From the NCBI GenBank assembly GCA_902806005.1, contig CADCUY010000569.1, positions 1 through 35,288 of the forward strand: DNA of 35,288 bases. The letters are read 5' to 3'. Source of the stretch: an uncultured Quadrisphaera sp. (GTDB lineage: Bacteria > Actinomycetota > Actinomycetes > Actinomycetales > Quadrisphaeraceae). The notes under the pieces were generated by a model, which was not told the origin of the DNA, did no database searches, and was given only the letters and a program-made list of their open reading frames with translations. The position numbers were made by a program, and so were the translations under genes. Positions 12,828-29,175 of this stretch are shown in pieces; the first letter of the stretch is position 1, and every line of letters starts with the position of its first letter.

Positions 12828-13832
12828 TCACCCCGCCGTGGGCGGGGCGAGCACGCGGGCGCTCGACGCCCGCGGGACGAGGTCGGGCTCGAAGACCGCC
12901 AGCCGCGCCTCGTCGCCCGAGCCGAGCAGCAGCTCCGCCGCGCGCCGGCCGAGCTGCTCCCGCGGCTGGCGCACCGACGACAGCGGCACCGCGGCTGACG
13001 CGGCGTAGTCGATGTCGTCGTAGCCGACGATGGCCAGGTCCTCCGGCACCCGGACGCCTCGCAGGAGGCACTGCTGGAGCACCCCCAGCGCGACGAGGTC
13101 GTTCGCGCAGAAGACGGCCGTCGGCCGCTCGTCCTGCGGGAGGTCGAGCACGACCGCAGCGGCGCGCCGCCCCTCGGCCACGGAGAGCCCCGCCGTCAGG
13201 ACCGTCGTGGTGGAGGCGGCCCCCACCACCTCCAGGAAGCCCTGCTGGCGCTCGCGCACCTGCGGCACCGACAGCGGCCCGCCGAGGAAGGCCGTCCGGG
13301 TGTGCCCGCGGTGCACGAGGTGCTCCCCGACCGCTCGTCCGCCGCGCACGTCGTCGACCGCGACCGCCCCCGCCGTCCACCGCTCGCCCGGCCCCGCGGC
13401 GCGGTCGACGAGCACTGCCGGCACCTCGCTGCGGCGCAGGATCTCCAGGCTCGGTGCGGAGACGGGGGTGATGAGCACCCCCATCACCCTCATCTCCGCC
13501 AGCCGGGCGAGCTGCCGCCGCTCGCGCTGCTCGTCGCCACCGCTGCTCGAGACCACCACGAGGGCGTCCTGCTCGTCCGCGACGGACTCCACGCCCGCCA
13601 CGACGTCCGTGAAGAAGGGGTTGGCGATGTCCAGGACCACGACGGCGATGGTGCGGCTGGCGCCGGCCCGCAGCTGGCGCGCCGACTCGTTGCGGACGAA
13701 GTCCAGGTCCTCGATGGCAGCGAGCACGTGCTCCCGCGTGCGCTCGGCGACCAGCTGGGGCCGGTTCAGGACGTTGCTCACGGTCCCCACCGACACACCG
13801 GCGCGACGAGCGACGTCCTTGATGCCGCTCAT
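12828..13832 (-). CDS. LacI family transcriptional regulator
   Basis: MSGIKDVARRAGVSVGTVSNVLNRPQLVAERTREHVLAAIEDLDFVRNESARQLRAGASRTIAVVVLDIANPFF HTH and sugar-binding domain. Confidence 0.95.
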   Translation of the reverse strand: MSGIKDVARRAGVSVGTVSNVLNRPQLVAERTREHVLAAIEDLDFVRNESARQLRAGASRTIAVVVLDIANPFFTDVVAGVESVADEQDALVVVSSSGGDEQRERRQLARLAEMRVMGVLITPVSAPSLEILRRSEVPAVLVDRAAGPGERWTAGAVAVDDVRGGRAVGEHLVHRGHTRTAFLGGPLSVPQVRERQQGFLEVVGAASTTTVLTAGLSVAEGRRAAAVVLDLPQDERPTAVFCANDLVALGVLQQCLLRGVRVPEDLAIVGYDDIDYAASAAVPLSSVRQPREQLGRRAAELLLGSGDEARLAVFEPDLVPRASSARVLAPPTAG

Positions 13833-16800
13833 CCTGCGCCCGGCGGGAAGGGGCCGCCCTGCCCGGTCGCCCACGGTCGTACCGTATCCGGACCGGGCGC
13901 GTCCCGGTCGGCTGGTGCGGCCACCTTCTCGAGGCGCACGGGTCCCCGGAGTCCCGCGCGCTCCTGGCCGCGGAAGACCGCGGGGGTGGGTGATGCCACC
14001 TGGAGGTAGCCGGCGAGGGTGCCACGGACGACGACCTCGAGCTCCAGCTCGGCGGTCCGGCGGCCCGCGAGCGCTGCCCGGAGCGCCGACGTCAGGTCGG
14101 CCCGGTACGGGCTCCAGGCGAGGGACGCGACGGGGGCACCCGCCAGGAGCACCTGGACGCTCCCGCGCACCGCGCCGAGGTCGAGGACGAGGCGCTCCCC
14201 GTCGGCGAGCGGGACCGCGGGCAGGGTCGTGCGGTAGGCCACCTCCCCGGCCAGCGCCCCGAGCCCGAGCTCGCCCCAGTCCACCAGGGGAGCCGCCGCG
14301 GGCCCCACCTCGGCGGAGACCGGTCCCTCGAGGAGCGCCCCTCCTCGCCGACCTCCCGGCCGGTCGAAGCGGAGGAGCACCTGGTGGCGCCCCTCGGCCG
14401 CGGCGGGCAGCCGGACCACGGGACCCTCGACCGCCAGCTCCCCGCCCTCGCACCACGCGGTGAAGGCGAGCTCCGTCGGCACCGTCAGCGTCCGGGCGCC
14501 GAGCGGGGCGCCCAGCCGGAGCCACCTCACCTCGTGCTGCGACGGATCGAGGTCGGGCACCACGGGCACGACCGCTCCGGCGCCGCCCCGCACCTCCTCC
14601 AGCCAGCCCGCTCCCGGCAGGGGGTGCGGCCGCGCGACGATGCACGCCGCCCTGGGGTCCTGCCACGGCAGGTGGCGCAGGTGCGCACCGACCTGCACCC
14701 CGTCCCGTCGCGCCGTCCACCGCCCGGCCCCGGTGACGACGCCGAGCCCGCCCAGGGCGACCGGCGCCGAGTCGACGAGGACCGCCGCCCCCCTGGCCGT
14801 GCTGGTGCTGCGCAGCGACAGCACGTTGTCCCCCTCCCGCAGCAGCGCCCGCAGGTCGTAGTGGTGGTAGCGGGCGAAGCGCCGGCCCTCGTACGGGTCG
14901 AAGGCGCTCTGCCGACCGACCTCGACCCCGTTGACGACGACGGTGCAGGGCTGTTCCGAGCCGATCTGGACCCGTGCGTCGCGCAGGCCCGCAGGGGCGG
15001 TGAACACGGTCTCCACCTCGACGGTGCTCGCGGGGGTCGACTCGCCCTCGGCCACCACCCACTCGGGGCGGCGGTAGGCCGTGGTGTCGGTGACCACCGC
15101 GAAGGAGGCGCGCAGCTCGCCCGCGTCGACGGCCCGGAACCACAGCTCCACCGCCCGCGCTCCCGGCGCGAGCGGTGTCAGGGTCCAGTGCCCCTCGCCC
15201 CCCACGGGGGCCTCGACACCGTCCAGGAGCACCGTGCGAGGAGCGCCGGCCCCGACGACCAGGGTCGCGGGCCTCCCGTCGTCGGGGACGTCGAGGGTCG
15301 TGCGGAGGCCGACCTGCTCGCCGGGTGCCAGGTGCGCCCAGGCCAGGAACTCCTCCGGGACGTACCCCTTCGGCCCGAGGGTCTCCCCGTGCGTCGGGTC
15401 GTCCTGGATCCCGCGGGAGAGGGACCACGAGGCAGGCGCCCACGCCGCGCCCGTGCGCCACGGCTCCGCCACGGCGGCGGGGACGGGGCCGGTGACCACG
15501 GCGAACGGGCCGTAGGTCGCCGTGACCGGGTACCACCCGGAGGGCTGGTCGCCCTCGGCGCTCTCCAGGGACCACACCTGCGGCGGGAGGAGCTCCAGCT
15601 GGTCGCGGGGGCCCACGTCCCCCCAGGTGTTGTCCAGCCGGGAGCGGGCCAGGAGGCTGAAGTCGGACAGCTCGGCGACGACCTCGCCGGCGACGTCCGG
15701 CACGCCGTCAGCGGGGGGCAGGTCGGTCCCCGCGACCAGGACCGTCACCGACCCGTCGCAGAAGCTGCCGTCGACGGTCAGGGAGCCGCCGGCGTCGGCC
15801 AGTGCGGCCACCGCCCGCCGCGTGCCGTCGCGCGGGTCCCACTGCTGCACCTGCGACCCCGGGTCCAGGCCGTGCAGGACGACCCGCCAGCTGCGCCCGG
15901 TGACGGGCACGAAGCCGTACCCCTCGTCGCGAGCGGTCCTCCAGTAGGTGTCCCATCCGCCCGTGACGAAGTCCTCGAAGCCGACGACGCCCGGCATGAT
16001 CGGCTGCCGCGTGCCCGTCCGGTCGTCGTGGGCGAACACCCCGACGACCGTCGTCGTCCCGACCCGGCGCAGCAGCGCCGGCGCGTCGGCCTCGACGTGC
16101 ACCGGGCCGTGGTGCAGCGCCGCCGGCACCTCGGCCGCGGTGTCCACCCGTCGGACGCGTCCTCGGGCGAGGGCGGCGGCGAAGCGGTCGCCACCGTCGT
16201 CACCCTCGCCTCCGGGGAACCAGGACGGTGCGGCGCCCACGACGACCACGGTGCCGCCGGAGTCGGCCAGGTCGGCCAGGCGCCCCGCGGCGGCCGCGTC
16301 CAGCGCGGTGGCTGCCGGGAGGACGGCGTTGCGGAACGCCAGGTCGCCGAGCCTCAGGACCCCCGCGTCCACCGCGCCCCTCGCCAGCGCGGCGTCGTCC
16401 AGGACGGAGTAGTCCCACCCGGCCGACTCCAGGACCCCGCGGCGCTCGTGGTACCAGGCCGGCTCGCCGTTGAGCTGCTGGTAGACCTCGGCCGACCGCG
16501 CCGCAGCCGGGAGCGGGCCGTCCAGGGCCGTGCCGCCCTGGGCCGTGGTGCTGGGGTGCAGGAGCACGGTGTCGGAGACGTGGCGCCCGGTGCTGAACAG
16601 CCGGCAGAGGCGCGCCACGGCACCGGAGAGCACGTGGTACTCGGGCCAGTACGGCTGACGGAAGCACGTGGAGGGCGGTGCCCACTCCCACCAGCCCCCG
16701 GCGGTGCTGTAGTACACGGCGTGGGGGTCGAACAGGGTCGCCCCCCGGCGCAGGAACGGTGCCAGCCAGTCGTAGGTCTCCTCGAGGGTGCCCCCCCACC

Positions 16801-17974
16801 CCGAGGAGTGGAAGGCCTCGATCCACGTGCGCCGGTGCCCGTGGGCGTGGGCGAGGGAGCTGTGCAGCTTCGTGTCGCCCCAGTGGTCGCTGCCGGGCAC
16901 CGCGTAGCCCCGGTGCGTCCCGAGGTAGTCGCCGTAGAGCCCGACGGCTCCGGTGGGGTGCCCCTCGCGCGCCGGGCTCTGCTGGTCGAAGCCGCAGACG
17001 AGGCCGTGCTCGGCGAACCAGCGCTCGAGCGGGTCGAAGAACGACCTCCGGGCCGAGGCGGCGCGGTGGCGGTGGTAGTCCAGGCGCACCCGCTCGCCCG
17101 TCAGCTCCCCGCCCCGGCCGTCGACCCCCTCGATCGGCTCGCCCCACAGCGCCGGCAGCACCGACGTCAGGTCGTAGGCGTGGTCCGCCGCGAAGGACGC
17201 CGCGAAGCGGGGGCCCCAGGTGGGCGTCGTCGGCAGCTCGTCCTGGAAGAACCCGGGGATCACGGTGCCGAACCACCGGCCGACCCGGCGCGCGAACTCG
17301 CCGTGGACGGTGTCGATCAGCGCTGCGCAGGCGGCCGGGCTGTAGTAGTCGAAGCCGTTCTCCTGGGCGAAGACCAGGACCAGCCGGTCCCCCGGTCCCT
17401 CCCACCGGGCCGTCCCGTCGACCACCTCGACGGGCGTGGTGCGCGACCCGCCGTCGGTGACGTAGGCGAGGAGGGCGACGGCCCCGTGGGGGGTGCTCAG
17501 GGAGGCGCCTCCCGGGTGGTCGAGGTGCACCTCGACCCGGCCGAGGGCCTGACCGGCCCACTCGGGGCGCTGGGTCACGAGCCGGCCCTGGAAGTTGGCC
17601 CCGGAGAAGCCGACCTGGTCGTAGGGCCACAGCCGGAAGTCGAGGTCCTCGGCGACCTCGCACGCCCCCTCGAAGAGCTGCCACCACTCCTCGGTGAGGT
17701 AGGCCGGGTCGTCGGCGAGGGAGCCGAACAGCGGCCCGGTGGGCGCGAGGTTCATGACGACCGCCTGCGCCACCCCCTGGGAGCGCAGCTGCCGCATCTG
17801 CCAGGTCAGCCGCTCCGGCCGGACCGTGCCACCGCTCCACCACCAGATGGGCACAGGACCGAAGCCGGCCGCGTCGGGCACCGCGAACGCCGCAGCCAGG
17901 GACGCGGCGTCCCCGTCCTCGGGCAGGAACGGGCGCGCCACGGGACGGGCCGGCCGGGCCTCGGGACGGGTCAT
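13829..17974 (-). CDS. Large GH106-like alpha-L-rhamnosidase family glycoside hydrolase (about 1381 aa)
   Basis: N-terminal GFGPVPIWWWSGGTVRPERLTWQMRQLRSQGVAQAVVMN and downstream barrel-like region, C-terminal jelly-roll-like segment (DVTTTAYRRPEW..VVVNGVEVGRQSAFDPYEGRRF..DLRALLREGDNVLSL-type); ATGA overlaps on both sides. Confidence 0.7.
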   Translation of the reverse strand: MTRPEARPARPVARPFLPEDGDAASLAAAFAVPDAAGFGPVPIWWWSGGTVRPERLTWQMRQLRSQGVAQAVVMNLAPTGPLFGSLADDPAYLTEEWWQLFEGACEVAEDLDFRLWPYDQVGFSGANFQGRLVTQRPEWAGQALGRVEVHLDHPGGASLSTPHGAVALLAYVTDGGSRTTPVEVVDGTARWEGPGDRLVLVFAQENGFDYYSPAACAALIDTVHGEFARRVGRWFGTVIPGFFQDELPTTPTWGPRFAASFAADHAYDLTSVLPALWGEPIEGVDGRGGELTGERVRLDYHRHRAASARRSFFDPLERWFAEHGLVCGFDQQSPAREGHPTGAVGLYGDYLGTHRGYAVPGSDHWGDTKLHSSLAHAHGHRRTWIEAFHSSGWGGTLEETYDWLAPFLRRGATLFDPHAVYYSTAGGWWEWAPPSTCFRQPYWPEYHVLSGAVARLCRLFSTGRHVSDTVLLHPSTTAQGGTALDGPLPAAARSAEVYQQLNGEPAWYHERRGVLESAGWDYSVLDDAALARGAVDAGVLRLGDLAFRNAVLPAATALDAAAAGRLADLADSGGTVVVVGAAPSWFPGGEGDDGGDRFAAALARGRVRRVDTAAEVPAALHHGPVHVEADAPALLRRVGTTTVVGVFAHDDRTGTRQPIMPGVVGFEDFVTGGWDTYWRTARDEGYGFVPVTGRSWRVVLHGLDPGSQVQQWDPRDGTRRAVAALADAGGSLTVDGSFCDGSVTVLVAGTDLPPADGVPDVAGEVVAELSDFSLLARSRLDNTWGDVGPRDQLELLPPQVWSLESAEGDQPSGWYPVTATYGPFAVVTGPVPAAVAEPWRTGAAWAPASWSLSRGIQDDPTHGETLGPKGYVPEEFLAWAHLAPGEQVGLRTTLDVPDDGRPATLVVGAGAPRTVLLDGVEAPVGGEGHWTLTPLAPGARAVELWFRAVDAGELRASFAVVTDTTAYRRPEWVVAEGESTPASTVEVETVFTAPAGLRDARVQIGSEQPCTVVVNGVEVGRQSAFDPYEGRRFARYHHYDLRALLREGDNVLSLRSTSTARGAAVLVDSAPVALGGLGVVTGAGRWTARRDGVQVGAHLRHLPWQDPRAACIVARPHPLPGAGWLEEVRGGAGAVVPVVPDLDPSQHEVRWLRLGAPLGARTLTVPTELAFTAWCEGGELAVEGPVVRLPAAAEGRHQVLLRFDRPGGRRGGALLEGPVSAEVGPAAAPLVDWGELGLGALAGEVAYRTTLPAVPLADGERLVLDLGAVRGSVQVLLAGAPVASLAWSPYRADLTSALRAALAGRRTAELELEVVVRGTLAGYLQVASPTPAVFRGQERAGLRGPVRLEKVAAPADRDAPGPDTVRPWATGQGGPFPPGAG

Positions 17975-20964: not shown

Positions 20965-20992
20965 CAATGGAGGTCGCCGGCACCGCCGTCAA
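20964..20992 (-). promoter_or_regulatory. Promoter of rhamnosidase-LacI operon
   Basis: Minus strand TTGACG-N17-CATTGT, -10 abutting operator O2. Confidence 0.5.
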
Positions 20993-21056
20993 TCCTCGCG
21001 TCAGCGGCGCGCTGGACCGAGGGCTCCTCGTCACGGCCGCGCCGGCGGAGCCCTCC

Positions 21057-21085
21057 TTGACGGCCGGGGCTCCCCCGACTAGCGT
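21057..21085 (+). promoter_or_regulatory. Promoter facing the rhamnose catabolic genes
   Basis: TTGACG-N17-TAGCGT, followed by operator O3. Confidence 0.7.
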
Positions 21086-21095
21086 CGTGCCGCGT

Positions 21096-21109
21096 TTGAA
21101 ACCTTTCAC
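21096..21109. promoter_or_regulatory. LacI-type operator O3
   Basis: TTGAAACCTTTCAC starting 39 bp after the start of the -35 element, same geometry as O1. Confidence 0.7.
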
Positions 21110-21119
21110 CGGGGGCGAT

Positions 21120-21383
21120 GTGGCCGACCAGCTCAGCAGGGCGCTGCGCACCCTGCGCGACGCCGGTGAGTCCTGCGGCGCCGTCCGCGCCCCCTGCGGC
21201 GCCCACCTCGACGCCCTGCACGGTGATCGCCACGCTCTCGTCCGTGGAGGGGGCTCCGGCAGGTCGACGCTGGTCGAGGTGCTGGCGGGCGTCCACCGCC
21301 CCGACTCCGGCGGGGTGCTGCTGCTCGGCCGACCGGGGACCTCCTCGGCCCCGCGGACGCCCGGGCCGCCGGCGCCTCCGTGA
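21120..21383 (+). pseudogene. Truncated N-terminal remnant of a sugar ABC transporter ATP-binding protein (RbsA/RhaT-type)
   Basis: GTG-start ORF VADQLSRALRTLRDAG..CGAVRAPCGAHLDALHGDRHALVRGGGSGRSTLVEVLAGVHRPDSGGVLLLGRPG..*; resembles the usual FGxVxALdGVdLdv..[38 protein letters not shown], then stops after 87 codons; Walker A Lys replaced by Arg. Confidence 0.6.
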
Positions 21384-21738: not shown

Positions 21739-22920
21739 ATGAGCACGACCACCCAGGAGCGCCAGGACTCAGCCCTGGCGGCGCTCGCCGCCCAGACCAT
21801 CGAGCTGCCCTCGTGGGCCTTCGCCAACTCGGGCACCCGCTTCAAGGTGTTCTCGCAGCGGGGCGTCCCCCGCGACCCGTTCGAGAAGGTCGCCGACGCC
21901 GCGCAGGTGCACCTGCACACCGGCGTGGCGCCGCGGGTCTCGCTCCACATCCCGTGGGACCTGGTCGACGACTTCGGCAAGCTCTCCGCCCACGCCGCCG
22001 ACCTGGGCGTGAGCATCGGGGCGATCAACTCCAACGTCTTCCAGGACGACGACTACATGCTCGGCTCGCTCACCCACCCCGACCCCGCGGTGCGCGACAA
22101 GGCCGTGGCCCAGCACCTGCGGTGCCTCGACGTCATGCGGGCCACCGGGTCGACCGACCTGAAGGTCTGGCTGCCCGACGGGCTGAACTACCCCGGCCAG
22201 GACGACATCCGCAGCCGCCAGGAGCGGCTCGCCGAGTCCCTGCAGCGGGTCTACGCCGAGCTCGACCCCGAGCACCGGCTGATCCTGGAGTACAAGTTCT
22301 TCGAGCCGGCCTTCTACGCCACGGACGTGCCGGACTGGGGCACCTCGCTGCTGCACTGCCTGGCGCTGGGCGACCAGGCGATGGTGGTGCTCGACACCGG
22401 CCACCACGCACCGGGGACGAACATCGAGTTCATCGTCGCCCAGCTGCTGCGCATCGGGCGGCTCGGGGCCTTCGACTTCAACTCCCGCTTCTACGCCGAC
22501 GACGACCTCATCGTCGGCGCGGCCGACCCCTTCCAGCTGTTCCGGATCATGCACGAGATCGTGCGCGGCGACGCCCTGCGCCCCGACTCGGGCGTGCGCT
22601 TCATGCTCGACCAGTGCCACAACGTCGAGCCGAAGGTCCCGGGCCAGATCCGCTCGGTGACCAACGTGCAGGAGGCCACGGCCAAGGCCCTGCTCGTCGA
22701 CCGCGAGGCGCTCGCCGCCGCGCAGCGGTCCGGTGACGTGCTCGGCGCCAACGGGGTCCTGATGGACGCGTACAACACCGACGTGCGCCCCCTGCTCGGC
22801 GACCTGCGGGAGTCGATGGGCCTGGCCCGCGACCCCTACGCCGCCTACGCCGCGTCGGGGTACGCCGAGCGGATCGCCGCCGAGCGGGTCGGCGGGGCGC
22901 AGGCCGGGTGGGGGGCCTGA
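21739..22920 (+). CDS. rhaI: L-rhamnose isomerase (actinobacterial RhaI type)
   Basis: IELPSWAFANSGTRFKVFSQRGVPRDPFEKVADAAQVHLHTGVAPRVSLHIPWDLVDD...DLKVWLPDGLNYPGQDDIRSRQ...LEYKFFEPAFYATDVPDWGTS. Confidence 0.92.
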   Translation: MSTTTQERQDSALAALAAQTIELPSWAFANSGTRFKVFSQRGVPRDPFEKVADAAQVHLHTGVAPRVSLHIPWDLVDDFGKLSAHAADLGVSIGAINSNVFQDDDYMLGSLTHPDPAVRDKAVAQHLRCLDVMRATGSTDLKVWLPDGLNYPGQDDIRSRQERLAESLQRVYAELDPEHRLILEYKFFEPAFYATDVPDWGTSLLHCLALGDQAMVVLDTGHHAPGTNIEFIVAQLLRIGRLGAFDFNSRFYADDDLIVGAADPFQLFRIMHEIVRGDALRPDSGVRFMLDQCHNVEPKVPGQIRSVTNVQEATAKALLVDREALAAAQRSGDVLGANGVLMDAYNTDVRPLLGDLRESMGLARDPYAAYAASGYAERIAAERVGGAQAGWGA

Positions 22921-24410
22921 TGGCCGAGAACGCCGACAGCGCGCCCGCGGCCGCCGCCACCACGGACGGCGTCCCCGCTGGTGAGCGCCTCGCCGGCCTC
23001 CTCCCAGCCAAGCAGCGCCGCCGCACCCGGATCGGCCTGGTCGCGGGCGGGCTGGGGACGTACTGGCCCCAGTTCCCCGGCCTGCTGCCCCAGCTGCAGG
23101 AGTCCGCCCGGTACGTCGCCGGGCGCTTCGCGCAGATGGACGCCGACGTCGTCGACGCCGGCTTCGTCTCCGACGCCCAGGAGGGGGCCGCGGCGGCCGA
23201 GCAGCTGCGCCGGGCCGACTGCGACCTCATCGTCCTGTTCCTGACGACCTACCTGACGTCGTCGATGGTGCTGCCGATCGCGCAGCGGGCGGGCACCCCG
23301 GTGCTGGTCATCGACCTGCAGCCCACCGAGCGGATGGACCACGCGACCTTCGACACGGGGGCGTGGCTGGCGTACTGCGGGCAGTGCCCCGTCCCGGAGG
23401 TGGGCAACGTCTTCCGCCGCGCCGGCATCCCGTTCCGGTCCGTCTCCGGCTGGCTCCGCCAGGACTCGGCCTGGGAGCGGATCGGGCAGTGGATCAGGGC
23501 GGCCCACGTGCGGGCGGCGCTGCGCCACGCCCGGCACGGGCTGATGGGGCACGTCTACCCCGGGATGCTCGACGTCTCCACCGACCTCACGCTCCTGCCG
23601 GCCACGTTCGGCTCCCACGTCGAGGTGCTGGAGCTCGACGACCTGCGCGTGCGCGTGGAGGCGGTCACCGACGCCGAGACCGAGGAGCGCAAGGACCTCG
23701 CCCGGGCCCTGTTCACCCTCGACGACGCGGTCGACGAGACCGACTTCGCCTGGGGCGCGCGCGTCTCGGTCGGGATGGACCGGCTCGTCGACGACTTCGA
23801 CCTGGACTCCCTCGCCTACTACCACCGCGGCCTGGCCGGCGAGCAGCACGAGCGCCTCGGCGCCGGGCTCATCCTCGGCGCCTCCCTGCTGACCGCCCGC
23901 GGCATCCCCGCCACCGGGGAGTACGAGCTGCGGACGACCGTGGCCCAGCTCGCGACCCAGGTGGTCGGGGCCGGCGGCTCCTTCACCGAGATCCAGGCCC
24001 TGGACTTCCAGGACGGCGTGGTCGAGATGGGCCACGACGGCCCGGCGCACCTGGCGGTCAGCGCCCGCGACCCGCTGCTGCGCGGGCTGGGGGTCTTCCA
24101 CGGCAAGCGCGGCTGGGGCGTCAGCGTCGAGTTCGACGTCCGCCCCGGACCCGTGACCCTGCTGGGCCTGGGGCAGGACCGCGACGGGTCGCTGAGCTTC
24201 GTCGCCTCGGAGGGCACGGTCGTCCCCGGCCCCCTGCTGGCCATCGGCAACACCACCAGCCGCGTCGACTTCGGCCGCGACCCCGGGGAGTGGGTCGACG
24301 CCTGGAGCGCCAGCGGCGTCGGCCACCACTGGTCGCTGTCCCTCGGCCACCGCAGCGGCGACTACGCCGCGGCCGCCAGCCTCCTCGGCATCGACTTCCG
24401 GAAGGTCTGA
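22920..24410 (+). CDS. L-fucose/L-arabinose isomerase family protein
   Basis: RIGLVAGGLGTYWPQFPGLLPQL, LFLTTYLTSSMVLPIAQRAGTPVLVIDLQP, GSFTEIQALDFQDGVVEMGHDGP, GVGHHWSLSLGH; start overlaps rhaI stop (TGATG). Confidence 0.85.
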   Translation: MAENADSAPAAAATTDGVPAGERLAGLLPAKQRRRTRIGLVAGGLGTYWPQFPGLLPQLQESARYVAGRFAQMDADVVDAGFVSDAQEGAAAAEQLRRADCDLIVLFLTTYLTSSMVLPIAQRAGTPVLVIDLQPTERMDHATFDTGAWLAYCGQCPVPEVGNVFRRAGIPFRSVSGWLRQDSAWERIGQWIRAAHVRAALRHARHGLMGHVYPGMLDVSTDLTLLPATFGSHVEVLELDDLRVRVEAVTDAETEERKDLARALFTLDDAVDETDFAWGARVSVGMDRLVDDFDLDSLAYYHRGLAGEQHERLGAGLILGASLLTARGIPATGEYELRTTVAQLATQVVGAGGSFTEIQALDFQDGVVEMGHDGPAHLAVSARDPLLRGLGVFHGKRGWGVSVEFDVRPGPVTLLGLGQDRDGSLSFVASEGTVVPGPLLAIGNTTSRVDFGRDPGEWVDAWSASGVGHHWSLSLGHRSGDYAAAASLLGIDFRKV

Positions 24411-24414
24411 GCCC

Positions 24415-26475
24415 ATGGCCACGCCCGTCGCCGACCTGCTCGCGCGCTCGAACGCCCTCGGGGCCGACCCGAGGAACACCAACTACGCCGGCGGCAACAC
24501 CTCCGCCGCGGGCCGCGACGTCGACCCGGTCACGGGAGACGACGTGGACCTGCTGTGGGTCAAGGGCTCCGGTGGCGATCTCGCCACCCTCACCGAGGCC
24601 GGGCTCGCCGTCCTGCGCCTGGACCGGGTGCGCGCGCTGCGCGGGGTCTACGCCGGGGTCGAGCGCGAGGACGAGGTGGTGGCCGCGTTCGACCACTGCC
24701 TGCACGGCCGGGGAGGGGCGGCGCCGTCCATCGACACCGCGATGCACGCCCTCGTCGACGCCCCGCACGTCGACCACCTGCACCCCGACTCCGGCATCGC
24801 GCTGGCCACGGCCGCCGACGGGGAGGCCCTGACGAGGGAGGTGTACGGCGACCGCGTGGTGTGGGTGCCGTGGCGCCGACCGGGCTTCCAGCTGGGGCTC
24901 GACGTCGCCGCGGTCGCCGCCGAGCACCCGGAGGCGATCGGCTGCGTCCTCGGCGGCCACGGGATCACCGCCTGGGGAGCCACCTCCGAGGAGTGCCGGG
25001 CCCGGTCGCTGGAGATCATCCGGACGGCGGAGGAGTTCATCGACCACCGGACGGCGCAGCTCGCGGCGCGGGGCCGCCACCCGTTCGGCGAGGAGCTCGA
25101 CGGGTACGGGCCCCTGCCGGACGGCGAGCGCCGGGCCCGGGCCGCCGCGCTGATGCCGGTGCTCCGCGGCCTGGCCAGCACCGACTCCCCCGCCGTCGGA
25201 CACCTCACCGACACCCCCGAGGTGCTCGAGTTCCTGGCCCGCGCCGAGCACCCCCGCCTGGCCGCGCTCGGGACCTCGTGCCCCGACCACTTCCTGCGCA
25301 CCAAGGTGCGCCCGATGCTCGTGGACCTGCCGGCCACCGCTCCGCTGGAGGAGGTGCTGACCCGGCTGCCCGCCCTCCACGAGGCCTACCGCGCCGACTA
25401 CGCCGCCTACTACGCGCGCCACGCCGCGGCGGACTCCCCCGCCATGCGCGGCGCCGACCCCGCCGTCGTCCTGGTGCCCGGGGTCGGGATGGTCAGCTAC
25501 GGCCGCGACAAGCAGACGGCCCGGGTCGCCGGGGAGTTCTACCTCAACGCCATCAACGTCATGCGCGGCGCGGAGGCCGTCAGCACCTACGCGCCCATCG
25601 ACGAGGCGGAGAAGTTCCGCATCGAGTACTGGGCGCTGGAGGAGGCCAAGCTCGCGCGGATCCCCGCACCGAAGCCGCTGGCCACGCGCGTGGCCCTGGT
25701 CACCGGCGCCGCGTCCGGCATCGGCAAGGCGGTCGCCGCGCGGCTGGCCGCGGAGGGCGCGTGCGTCGTCGTCGCGGACCTCGACCTCGCGAAGGCGCAG
25801 GCCGCAGCGGACGAGGTCGCCGGCGGGAGGGGCTCCGACGTCGCCGTCGGCGTGGCCGTGGACGTCTCCGACGCCGCCGCGGTCACCGCCGCCGTGCAGG
25901 AGGCGGTGCTGGCCTTCGGCGGGCTCGACCTGGTGGTCAACAACGCCGGCCTGTCGATCTCCAAGCCGCTGCTGGAGACCACCGAGCGCGACTGGGACCT
26001 CCAGCACGACGTCATGGCCAAGGGGTCGTTCCTGGTGTCCCAGGCCGCGGCGAGGGTGCTCATCGCCCAGGGCATGGGCGGCGACGTCGTGTACGTCTCG
26101 TCCAAGAACAGCGTCTTCGCCGGCCCGAACAACATCGCCTACTCGGCGGTCAAGGCCGACCAGGCGCACCAGGTGCGGCTGCTGGCTGCCGAGCTCGGCG
26201 AGCACGGCGTGAAGGTCAACGGGATCAACCCCGACGGCGTGGTGCGAGGCTCGGGGATCTTCGCCGGCGGGTGGGGCGCCTCCCGGGCGAAGACCTACGG
26301 GGTGCCCGAGGAGGAGCTGGGCGCCTTCTACGCCCAGCGCACCCTGCTCAAGCGGGAGGTGCTGCCCGAGCACGTGGCGAACGCGGTGTTCGTGCTGTGC
26401 AGCGCGGACCTGAGCCACACCACCGGGCTGCACGTGCCGGTCGACGCCGGCGTCGCCGCTGCCTTCCTGCGATGA
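24415..26475 (+). CDS. rhaEW: Bifunctional rhamnulose-1-phosphate aldolase / short-chain (lactaldehyde) dehydrogenase fusion (RhaE-RhaW)
   Basis: N-terminal class II aldolase (NTNYAGGNTSAAG, WVKGSGGDL, DHLHPDSGIALA), C-terminal SDR (ALVTGAASGIGKAVA, VVNNAGLS, YSAVKADQAH). Confidence 0.93.
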   Translation: MATPVADLLARSNALGADPRNTNYAGGNTSAAGRDVDPVTGDDVDLLWVKGSGGDLATLTEAGLAVLRLDRVRALRGVYAGVEREDEVVAAFDHCLHGRGGAAPSIDTAMHALVDAPHVDHLHPDSGIALATAADGEALTREVYGDRVVWVPWRRPGFQLGLDVAAVAAEHPEAIGCVLGGHGITAWGATSEECRARSLEIIRTAEEFIDHRTAQLAARGRHPFGEELDGYGPLPDGERRARAAALMPVLRGLASTDSPAVGHLTDTPEVLEFLARAEHPRLAALGTSCPDHFLRTKVRPMLVDLPATAPLEEVLTRLPALHEAYRADYAAYYARHAAADSPAMRGADPAVVLVPGVGMVSYGRDKQTARVAGEFYLNAINVMRGAEAVSTYAPIDEAEKFRIEYWALEEAKLARIPAPKPLATRVALVTGAASGIGKAVAARLAAEGACVVVADLDLAKAQAAADEVAGGRGSDVAVGVAVDVSDAAAVTAAVQEAVLAFGGLDLVVNNAGLSISKPLLETTERDWDLQHDVMAKGSFLVSQAAARVLIAQGMGGDVVYVSSKNSVFAGPNNIAYSAVKADQAHQVRLLAAELGEHGVKVNGINPDGVVRGSGIFAGGWGASRAKTYGVPEEELGAFYAQRTLLKREVLPEHVANAVFVLCSADLSHTTGLHVPVDAGVAAAFLR

Positions 26476-27936: not shown

Positions 27937-29175
27937 GTGGTGCAGCGCCAGTTCCCCCGGCCCGTCGAGGTCTTCGAGAACGTGCGGTTCAAGCGGCCCG
28001 ACCTGAACGGCCGACGGCGGCGCCTGGCGGCCGCGCTCACGGTCGAGGACCTGCGCGCGATCGCCGAGCGGCGGACCCCACGGGCGGCCTTCGACTACAC
28101 CGACGGGTCCGCCGAGGCGGAGATCTCCATCGCCCGGGCCCGGCAGGCCTTCGAGGACGTGGAGTTCCACCCGGAGGTGCTGCGCGACGTCGCGCACGTC
28201 GACACCACCGCCACCGTCTTCGGCGCCTCCTCCGCCCTGCCCTTCGGCATCGCGCCGACCGGCTTCACGCGCCTGATGCAGACCGAGGGCGAGACCGCGG
28301 GGGCCGGCGCCGCCGCCGCCGCGGGGATCCCGTTCACCCTCTCCACCCTCGGCACCACCTCCATCGAGGACGTGAGGGCGGCGAACCCCGAGGGCCGCAA
28401 CTGGTTCCAGCTCTACGTGATGCGGCAGCGGGAGATCTCGTACGGCCTGGTCGAGCGCGCGGCGGCCGCCGGCTACGAGACGCTCTTCTTCACCGTCGAC
28501 ACCCCGGTCGCCGGGGCGCGGCTGCGCGACAGGCGCAACGGCTTCTCCATCCCGCCCCGGCTCACCGTCGGCACGGTCCTCGACGCGGCGTCCCGCCCGT
28601 GGTGGTGGTTCGACTTCCTCACCACCCCCAAGCTCGAGTTCGCCTCCCTGTCCGCCACCGGCGGCACCGTCGGCGACCTGCTCGACCTCGCGATGGACCC
28701 CACCATCAGCTACGAGGACCTGGAGCTCATCCGCGGGATGTGGCCCGGGAAGATCGCCATCAAGGGCGTGCAGGGCCTGGCCGACGCCAAGAGGTTCGCC
28801 GACCTCGGCGTCGACGGCCTCGTCCTGTCCAACCACGGCGGCCGCCAGCTGGACCGGGCCCCCGTTCCCTTCCACCTGCTCCCCGAGGTGGTGCGCGAGG
28901 TCGGCGCCGACGTCGACGTCATCGTCGACACCGGCATCATGAACGGCGCCGACGTCGTCGCCTCGATCGCGCTCGGGGCGAAGTTCACGCTCATCGGGCG
29001 GGCGTACCTGTACGGGCTCATGGCCGGCGGCCGCGCGGGCGTCGACCGCACGATCCAGATCCTCACCGAGCAGGTCGTGCGGACCATGAAGCTGCTCGGC
29101 GCTCACTCCCTCGACGAGCTCTCCCCGCGGCACGTCACCCAGCTCGAGCGCCTGGTGCCCCGAGCCCGGTCGTGA
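27937..29175 (+). CDS. lldD: FMN-dependent L-lactate dehydrogenase / alpha-hydroxy acid oxidase family
   Basis: [82 protein letters not shown] 27937 or 27940 start. Confidence 0.9.

What the first reader, a model, noticed from the sequence alone, without database searches (positions are those of the whole stretch)
22920..24410. Second, AraA/FucI-family isomerase translationally coupled to rhaI
Seen: the stop of rhaI and the start of this gene overlap (TGATG), and the protein keeps the acidic/His motifs (SFTEIQ, VEMGHDGP, GVGHHW) expected of a metal-dependent isomerase. Known: RhaI alone suffices for rhamnose to rhamnulose. Inference: the operon either handles a second 6-deoxy or pentose sugar (L-fucose, L-arabinose, 6-deoxy-L-talose) released with rhamnose, using shared kinase/aldolase, or this protein has a new role such as epimerisation.
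Basis: partly seen in the sequence, partly recalled or inferred. Interest (0 to 1): 0.6.

Follow-up and report, generated by a model that had tools for sequence, protein, structure and literature searches.

The report
Uncharacterised second isomerase in rhamnose operon
Next to the usual rhamnose isomerase this bacterium carries a second, unrelated sugar isomerase from an unnamed family that is tied to rhamnose breakdown across many bacteria and, in some relatives, appears to be the only rhamnose isomerase they have.

Summary
The gene is real: 22920-24410 (+), 496 aa, start codon overlapping the rhaI stop by one base. The protein has the AraA/FucI fold (AlphaFold pLDDT 89.5; L-arabinose isomerase TM 0.84) and all four AraA metal/catalytic residues (E334, E357, H372, H470), so it is very probably an active metal-dependent aldose-ketose isomerase. 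It is not AraA, FucI or sulfoquinovose isomerase: curated cut-offs are missed widely and the AraA pocket residues are replaced, in a pattern shared by its own clade. 74 of 80 close relatives lie within 10 kb of rhamnose genes; all 38 genomes tested also carry RhaI. The key new evidence is a 30%-identical branch of the same clade: in a related class, 13 of 13 genomes place it beside RhaB and RhaD and have neither RhaA nor RhaI; other genomes of the class pair RhaD with RhaA instead, never both. That is the pattern of a third, non-orthologous L-rhamnose isomerase. In the window it acts alongside RhaI, either as a second rhamnose isomerase (favoured) or on a rhamnose-like 6-deoxy sugar sharing the same kinase and aldolase.

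The parts
22920..24410 (+). The isomerase gene (496 aa, P0001), uncharacterised clade of the AraA/FucI fold
22918..22922 (+). TGATG: rhaI stop and isomerase start overlapping by one base
23919..23921 (+). Codon of E334, equivalent of AraA E306
   Evidence: invariant in 50 of 50 rows
23988..23990 (+). Codon of E357, equivalent of AraA E333
24033..24035 (+). Codon of H372, equivalent of AraA H350
24327..24329 (+). Codon of H470, equivalent of AraA H450
21739..22920 (+). rhaI, L-rhamnose isomerase (xylose-isomerase-type TIM barrel, not homologous to the finding)
   Evidence: TIGR02635 596 bits, cut-off 531
24415..26475 (+). rhaEW, rhamnulose-1-phosphate aldolase fused to lactaldehyde dehydrogenase
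   Evidence: TIGR02632 1013 bits
26483..27931 (+). rhaB-type rhamnulokinase
   Evidence: TIGR02627 376 bits (cut-off 528), best of all families
27961..29175 (+). FMN-dependent alpha-hydroxy-acid (lactate-type) dehydrogenase; start codon approximate
   Evidence: PF01070 414 bits
17971..20967 (-). GH78 alpha-L-rhamnosidase, divergent
   Evidence: PF17389 396 bits
13829..17974 (-). GH106-like protein, overlapping the GH78 stop; 37% identical to the protein beside this isomerase in Streptomyces
   Evidence: no direct Pfam hit for the window copy
12828..13832 (-). LacI-family regulator of the rhamnoside island
   Evidence: PF00356/PF13377

Best explanation
The gene encodes a metal-dependent aldose-ketose isomerase with the AraA/FucI fold, from an uncharacterised clade dedicated to L-rhamnose-type sugars. 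It most likely converts L-rhamnose (or a close 6-deoxy relative) to L-rhamnulose by the enediol mechanism of AraA, using a divalent metal held by E334, E357, H372 and H470; RhaB phosphorylates the product and RhaEW cleaves it to DHAP and lactaldehyde and oxidises the latter. In another class of the phylum a distant member is the only isomerase in RhaB-RhaD operons, that is, a third, non-orthologous L-rhamnose isomerase beside RhaA and RhaI; in the window and its near relatives the enzyme works as a second isomerase together with RhaI. Shown: gene, predicted fold, conserved catalytic residues, clade, neighbourhood and occurrence. Inferred: activity, substrate, metal, co-transcription.
For: Fold: AF2 pLDDT 89.5, pTM 0.89; Foldseek best hits are all AraA (4f2d TM 0.84, E 1e-31), then FucI. 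Catalytic residues: E306/E333/H350/H450 of E. coli AraA align with E334/E357/H372/H470 and are invariant in all groups. Pocket: Q16, Q125, H128, M185, F279 of AraA replaced by L45, C153, C156, Y213, H302; L45, Y111 and Y213 are invariant through the clade, while the AraA-like groups D and E keep the AraA residues at these five positions; M185 and F279 help position the substrate in AraA (PMC11172353). Tree: the window's group A, group B, Deinococcus/rhizobia/Pantoea and group C on one side, AraA and araBD-linked groups on the other, 100/100. Context: 74 of 80 relatives within 10 kb of rha catabolic genes (17 of 25 non-Streptomyces) or GH106-like/GH78 genes (55 of 55 Streptomyces, 2 others); group B and Deinococcus members sit in operons with RhaI, RhaEW, RhaB, RhaM or rhamnose transporters. 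Co-occurrence: RhaI in 38/38, RhaEW in 36/37; phylum sample 5 of 5 carriers have RhaI against 25 of 291 others, p=8e-6. Replacement: in the class of G262, 13/200 genomes have the group C protein, all 13 with RhaD 13-240 bp away and a rhamnulokinase beside it, none with RhaA or RhaI; RhaA occurs in 10 other genomes, 9 with RhaD; the 20 best RhaD genomes split 12:8 with no overlap and no gap.
Against: RhaI is always present with groups A/B, so for the window no pathway gap demands a second rhamnose isomerase. Group C is only about 30% identical to the window protein; specificity may have changed. In Streptomyces the gene forms a unit with an MFS transporter and a GH106-like gene away from rhaI/rhaEW/rhaB, and in rhizobia it stands with AraC and its own sugar ABC transporter, with no kinase or aldolase beside it, which could mean a different sugar. 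One distant branch (C2: L106, L107) is not in a rha operon, and one of its genomes, G060, has RhaA elsewhere. No member has a measured activity that I could find.
Confidence: 0.58

Rival explanations
1. It isomerises a second 6-deoxy sugar released with rhamnose (for example 6-deoxy-L-glucose, which would also give L-rhamnulose; L-fucose; 6-deoxy-L-talose; a methylated rhamnose) and feeds it into the shared kinase and aldolase, while RhaI handles L-rhamnose.
For: RhaI always present; separate Streptomyces unit with MFS and GH106-like gene while rhaI lies elsewhere; group A pocket differs from group C at some positions (H302 for Y, Y335 for G, C153 for L); rhamnulokinases are known to accept L-fuculose and L-xylulose too (PMC3245297).
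Against: Group C sits alone in an otherwise standard RhaB-RhaD pathway; L45, Y111 and Y213 are shared between A, B and C; no L-fuculokinase over cut-off in 37 genomes (weak because the cut-off is E. coli-based).
Confidence: 0.32
2. It is an L-arabinose isomerase, as much public annotation says ('arabinose isomerase', 'L-fucose/L-arabinose isomerase family protein').
For: Same fold and metal ligands; annotation labels.
Against: PRK02929 27.5 bits against a cut-off of 622; pocket residues replaced; no araB/araD in the window's operon, whereas the truly AraA-like group D sits with them.
Confidence: 0.04
3. It is a C2 epimerase, a ring-opening or mutarotation helper, or a non-catalytic partner of RhaI rather than an isomerase.
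For: Redundant with RhaI; sometimes next to rhaM (L102, L103).
Against: All catalytic residues conserved; a RhaM mutarotase is present in addition in several of the same operons; group C has no other known isomerase to assist.
Confidence: 0.06

Closest known systems
L-arabinose isomerase AraA (PDB 4f2d, 2ajt, 4r1o)
   Same: Whole fold (TM 0.84), four metal/catalytic residues
   Different: About 18% identity; pocket residues Q16, Q125, H128, M185, F279 replaced; rhamnose instead of arabinose gene context
L-fucose isomerase FucI (PDB 1fui, 4c20)
   Same: Same superfamily fold (TMq 0.71-0.76)
   Different: 13-15% identity, about 100 residues shorter, PF02952 below cut-off
Sulfoquinovose isomerase SftI (NF048012)
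   Same: Best NCBIfam hit of the window protein (1.8e-7)
   Different: 30 bits against a cut-off of 700; no sulfo-SFT gene among the neighbours identified
L-rhamnose isomerases RhaA and RhaI
   Same: Predicted reaction and pathway slot
   Different: Both are of the xylose-isomerase-type TIM-barrel kind (established knowledge; RhaI also hits PF01261); no match of this protein to either; in the class of G262 RhaA and the group C branch never occur together

Membership tests
L-arabinose isomerase (AraA) | AraA fold and metal ligands E306, E333, H350, H450 | tested here: met
L-arabinose isomerase (AraA) | Curated score PRK02929 (622 bits) | tested here: not met
   27.5 bits
L-arabinose isomerase (AraA) | Substrate-pocket residues Q16, Q125, H128, M185, F279 | tested here: not met
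   L, C, C, Y, H
L-arabinose isomerase (AraA) | araB/araD neighbours | tested here: not met
   rha genes instead; group D does meet it
L-fucose isomerase (FucI) | Pfam PF02952 over gathering score 29.3 | tested here: not met
   13.1 bits
L-fucose isomerase (FucI) | L-fuculokinase in genome | tested here: inconclusive
   none of 37 over the E. coli-based cut-off; RhaB-type kinases may act on L-fuculose
Sulfoquinovose isomerase (SftI) | NF048012 over 700 bits | tested here: not met
   30.3 bits
L-rhamnose isomerase RhaI or RhaA (sequence family) | TIGR02635 or TIGR01748 match | tested here: not met
   neither is listed for protein 1
L-rhamnose isomerase (function, non-orthologous) | Fills the only isomerase slot of a RhaB-RhaD operon without RhaA/RhaI | tested here: inconclusive
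   met for the 30%-identical group C, not for the window genome, which has RhaI
L-rhamnose isomerase (function, non-orthologous) | Converts L-rhamnose to L-rhamnulose | not testable with these tools
   needs an enzyme assay

The most novel reading that the evidence does not exclude
Actinomycete rhamnose operons run two isomerases in parallel because the second one opens a new entry: it takes an as yet unrecognised rhamnose-like 6-deoxy sugar (for example 6-deoxy-L-glucose or a modified rhamnose cut off by the GH106-like enzyme) to the common intermediate L-rhamnulose, while its distant relatives in another class are a third kind of L-rhamnose isomerase.
Probability: 0.27. Interest if true: 0.62.

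Novelty: new variant of a known kind. Interest (0 to 1): 0.48.

Why it matters
A widely spread gene now labelled 'arabinose isomerase' or 'L-fucose/L-arabinose isomerase family' appears to belong to rhamnose metabolism, and one branch fills the missing isomerase step in 13 genomes that have RhaB and RhaD but neither known rhamnose isomerase. If true it adds a third, structurally unrelated solution to the same reaction and corrects annotation over hundreds of genomes; the reaction is cheap to test. Isomerases with new specificity are also wanted for rare-sugar synthesis.

Tried and rejected
L-arabinose isomerase: rejected on score, pocket residues and context. Fucose and sulfoquinovose isomerase: scores far below cut-off. 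I first wondered whether the gene replaces RhaI in Actinoplanes, where RhaI is missing from the neighbourhood; the whole-genome search found RhaI elsewhere in every such genome, so rejected. For the Sinorhizobium homologue I guessed that its transporter was SMb21587/GafA, which binds L-arabinose and D-galactose (PMC10191376); the published primer sequence is not in that locus, so that lead was wrong and is not used. A second guess at its locus tag (SMb21377) does not fit the gene order either. Literature searches for this family by name or COG number, for RhaI with fucose isomerase, and for an AraA-type enzyme in rhamnose operons found nothing on its function; the main comparative study of rhamnose pathways names only RhaA and RhaI as isomerases (PMC3870299). 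The L-fuculokinase search is too unspecific to count.

Full report
Observation. The finding is accurate in every detail. The stop codon of rhaI is at 22918-22920 and the next gene starts at ATG 22920, sharing one base (TGATG); the gene ends at 24410 and encodes 496 residues, kept as P0001. Codon composition is that of a coding frame in this 75% G+C genome. The window is one contig of a draft genome of 2.86 Mb in 606 contigs, 76% complete.

Surroundings. On the + strand: rhaI (TIGR02635, 596 bits), the finding, rhaEW (TIGR02632, 1013 bits), a RhaB-type rhamnulokinase (376 bits; best family but below the equivalog cut-off), and an FMN-dependent hydroxy-acid dehydrogenase. Divergently on the - strand: a GH78 alpha-L-rhamnosidase, a 1381-residue protein 37% identical to a GH106-like protein of Streptomyces, a LacI regulator, and an ABC sugar transporter with solute-binding protein and permease. 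The whole is a rhamnoside-utilisation island.

What the protein is. By sequence it falls far below every curated family: sulfoquinovose isomerase 30 bits (cut-off 700), L-arabinose isomerase 27.5 (cut-off 622), Pfam fucose isomerase C-terminal domain 13 (cut-off 29); among solved structures the only isomerases that match are AraA chains, at best E 5e-5. The AlphaFold model, built on 32 sequences, is confident (pLDDT 89.5, pTM 0.89) and its best structural matches are L-arabinose isomerases over the full length (TM mostly 0.83-0.86, about 18% identity), then L-fucose isomerases. Alignment with E. coli AraA puts the metal/catalytic residues E306, E333, H350 and H450 on E334, E357, H372 and H470, without exception in all 50 rows. 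These four are named as the active residues of AraA in PMC11172353, and M185 and F279 among those that position the substrate; the other pocket positions I compared (Q16, F83, Q125, H128) rest on my own knowledge of AraA structures. At Q16, F83, Q125, H128, M185 and F279 the window protein has L45, Y111, C153, C156, Y213 and H302. L45, Y111 and Y213 are invariant in the clade. The groups that are really AraA-like (D and E) keep the AraA residue at all of these except F83, which is Y in group D. The N-terminal part of that alignment is at low identity and less sure than the core.

Clade and spread. At least 231 stretches in the species-level genome collection encode relatives: Streptomyces, Actinoplanes, Micromonospora, Microbacterium and other Micrococcales, Nocardioides, Gordonia, Patulibacter, and a Chloroflexi bin. 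Further members are in Deinococcus, Sinorhizobium, Rhizobium, Devosia and Pantoea. A maximum-likelihood tree puts group A (window type), group B (47-51% identity, other families of the phylum), the Deinococcus/rhizobia/Pantoea set and group C (30%) on one side of a 100/100 branch and AraA, group E and the araB-araD-linked group D on the other. The split between C and the rest of the clade has lower support (89/87), and some long branches meet, so the inner order is provisional.

Gene context. Of 80 close relatives, 17 of 25 outside Streptomyces have rhaI, rhaEW or rhaB within 10 kb, two more have rhamnosidase-type genes, and all 55 in Streptomyces have a GH106-like or GH78 gene nearby but no rhaI/rhaEW/rhaB. 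In most of the Streptomyces the unit is an MFS transporter plus the isomerase, divergent from the GH106-like gene and a LacI regulator; that MFS is 32-37% identical to MFS proteins of group B rha operons. In Cryobacterium, Nocardioides and others the gene stands inside one rhamnose operon with transporter, mutarotase, rhaI, rhaEW and rhaB. In group B it is in the rha operon too, in two cases next to rhaM, and so it is in Deinococcus. In rhizobia it stands with an AraC regulator and its own sugar ABC transporter, in Pantoea without any evident catabolic partner.

Co-occurrence. Every one of 38 genomes with a group A gene also has RhaI (37 over the cut-off, one at 488 bits), and 36 of 37 genomes with groups A or B have RhaEW, the exception being the small Chloroflexi bin. 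In 297 genomes of the phylum, all 5 other carriers of group A/B have RhaI, while 25 RhaI genomes lack the gene (Fisher p = 8e-6). So the gene presupposes the rhamnose pathway, but the pathway does not need it.

The replacement pattern. Two genomes of the phylum sample, G262 and G112 (each 99% complete), have the operon AraC - rhamnulokinase - group C isomerase - rhamnulose-1-phosphate aldolase RhaD (in G262: kinase 547 bits, over the cut-off, and aldolase 325 bits) and have neither RhaI nor RhaA. The group C gene is in 13. All 13 have RhaD, 13-240 bp away, and a rhamnulokinase on the same small locus. None has RhaA or RhaI. RhaA is in 10 genomes, 9 of them with RhaD, none with the group C gene. 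The 20 genomes with the best RhaD scores (286 bits or more) split 12 to 8 with no overlap and no gap. The cut at 286 bits was chosen after seeing the data; over all 52 RhaD-like genomes exclusivity alone gives p = 0.06 because 30 lower-scoring ones have neither isomerase, while the association of the group C gene with RhaD gives p = 7e-9; neither test corrects for relatedness. This is the classical picture of non-orthologous displacement and the main reason to call the clade rhamnose isomerases.

Interpretation. Fold and catalytic residues: strong. Role in rhamnose or rhamnoside catabolism: strong (about 0.9). Group C as the L-rhamnose isomerase of its species: likely (about 0.8). L-rhamnose as the substrate of the window protein itself: favoured but open (about 0.58), because RhaI is always there. 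A precedent for two unrelated rhamnose isomerases in one genome is Bacillus licheniformis, with RhaA and RhaI (PMC3870299). The main rival is a second 6-deoxy sugar that enters through the same kinase and aldolase; rhamnulokinases are known to be permissive (PMC3245297), so context cannot separate the two. Only assays can.

Novelty. The superfamily and the reaction type are known; the clade has no assigned function in anything I could search, is labelled as arabinose isomerase in many public records, and one branch looks like a third type of L-rhamnose isomerase. I rate it a new variant of a known kind, of moderate interest and easily testable. The paper library holds only open-licence papers, so an earlier description elsewhere cannot be excluded.

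Noticed in passing
window 20967-21383 (+): N-terminal fragment of a sugar ABC transporter ATPase (about 42-43% identical over 60-90 residues to the sugar ABC ATPases of related rha operons), cut off just before rhaI; the rhamnose transporter seems to have been lost by deletion, or the draft assembly is faulty here.
   Followed up: partly
window 13829-17974 (-): 1381-residue GH106-like protein without any Pfam match of its own, 37% identical to the protein that stands divergently beside this isomerase in Streptomyces.
   Followed up: partly
L073 9980-12966 (Gordonia hankookensis): Two tandem paralogues of the isomerase (the second 48% identical to the window protein), followed by a sugar porter; the second is on a long branch, which suggests two different substrates.
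   Followed up: no
L110, L111, L113 (group D): araB - araD - short AraA-like isomerase operons whose isomerase keeps most of the AraA pocket but scores only 209 bits against a cut-off of 622: a divergent L-arabinose isomerase.
   Followed up: partly
L106, L107 (group C2; G060, G031): Relatives of group C not in a rha operon but next to a putative cyclase (PF04199, tested in L107); G060 has RhaA elsewhere, so this branch may have another role.
   Followed up: no
class of G262: 30 of 200 genomes have a lower-scoring RhaD-like aldolase with neither RhaA, RhaI nor the group C isomerase: another aldolase function or a further unknown isomerase.
   Followed up: no
L142, L148, L150 (Sinorhizobium, Devosia, Rhizobium): Conserved unit AraC | isomerase - sugar ABC transporter - CocE/NonD-type hydrolase (PF02129, tested in L142), with no kinase or aldolase; substrate unknown.
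   Followed up: partly
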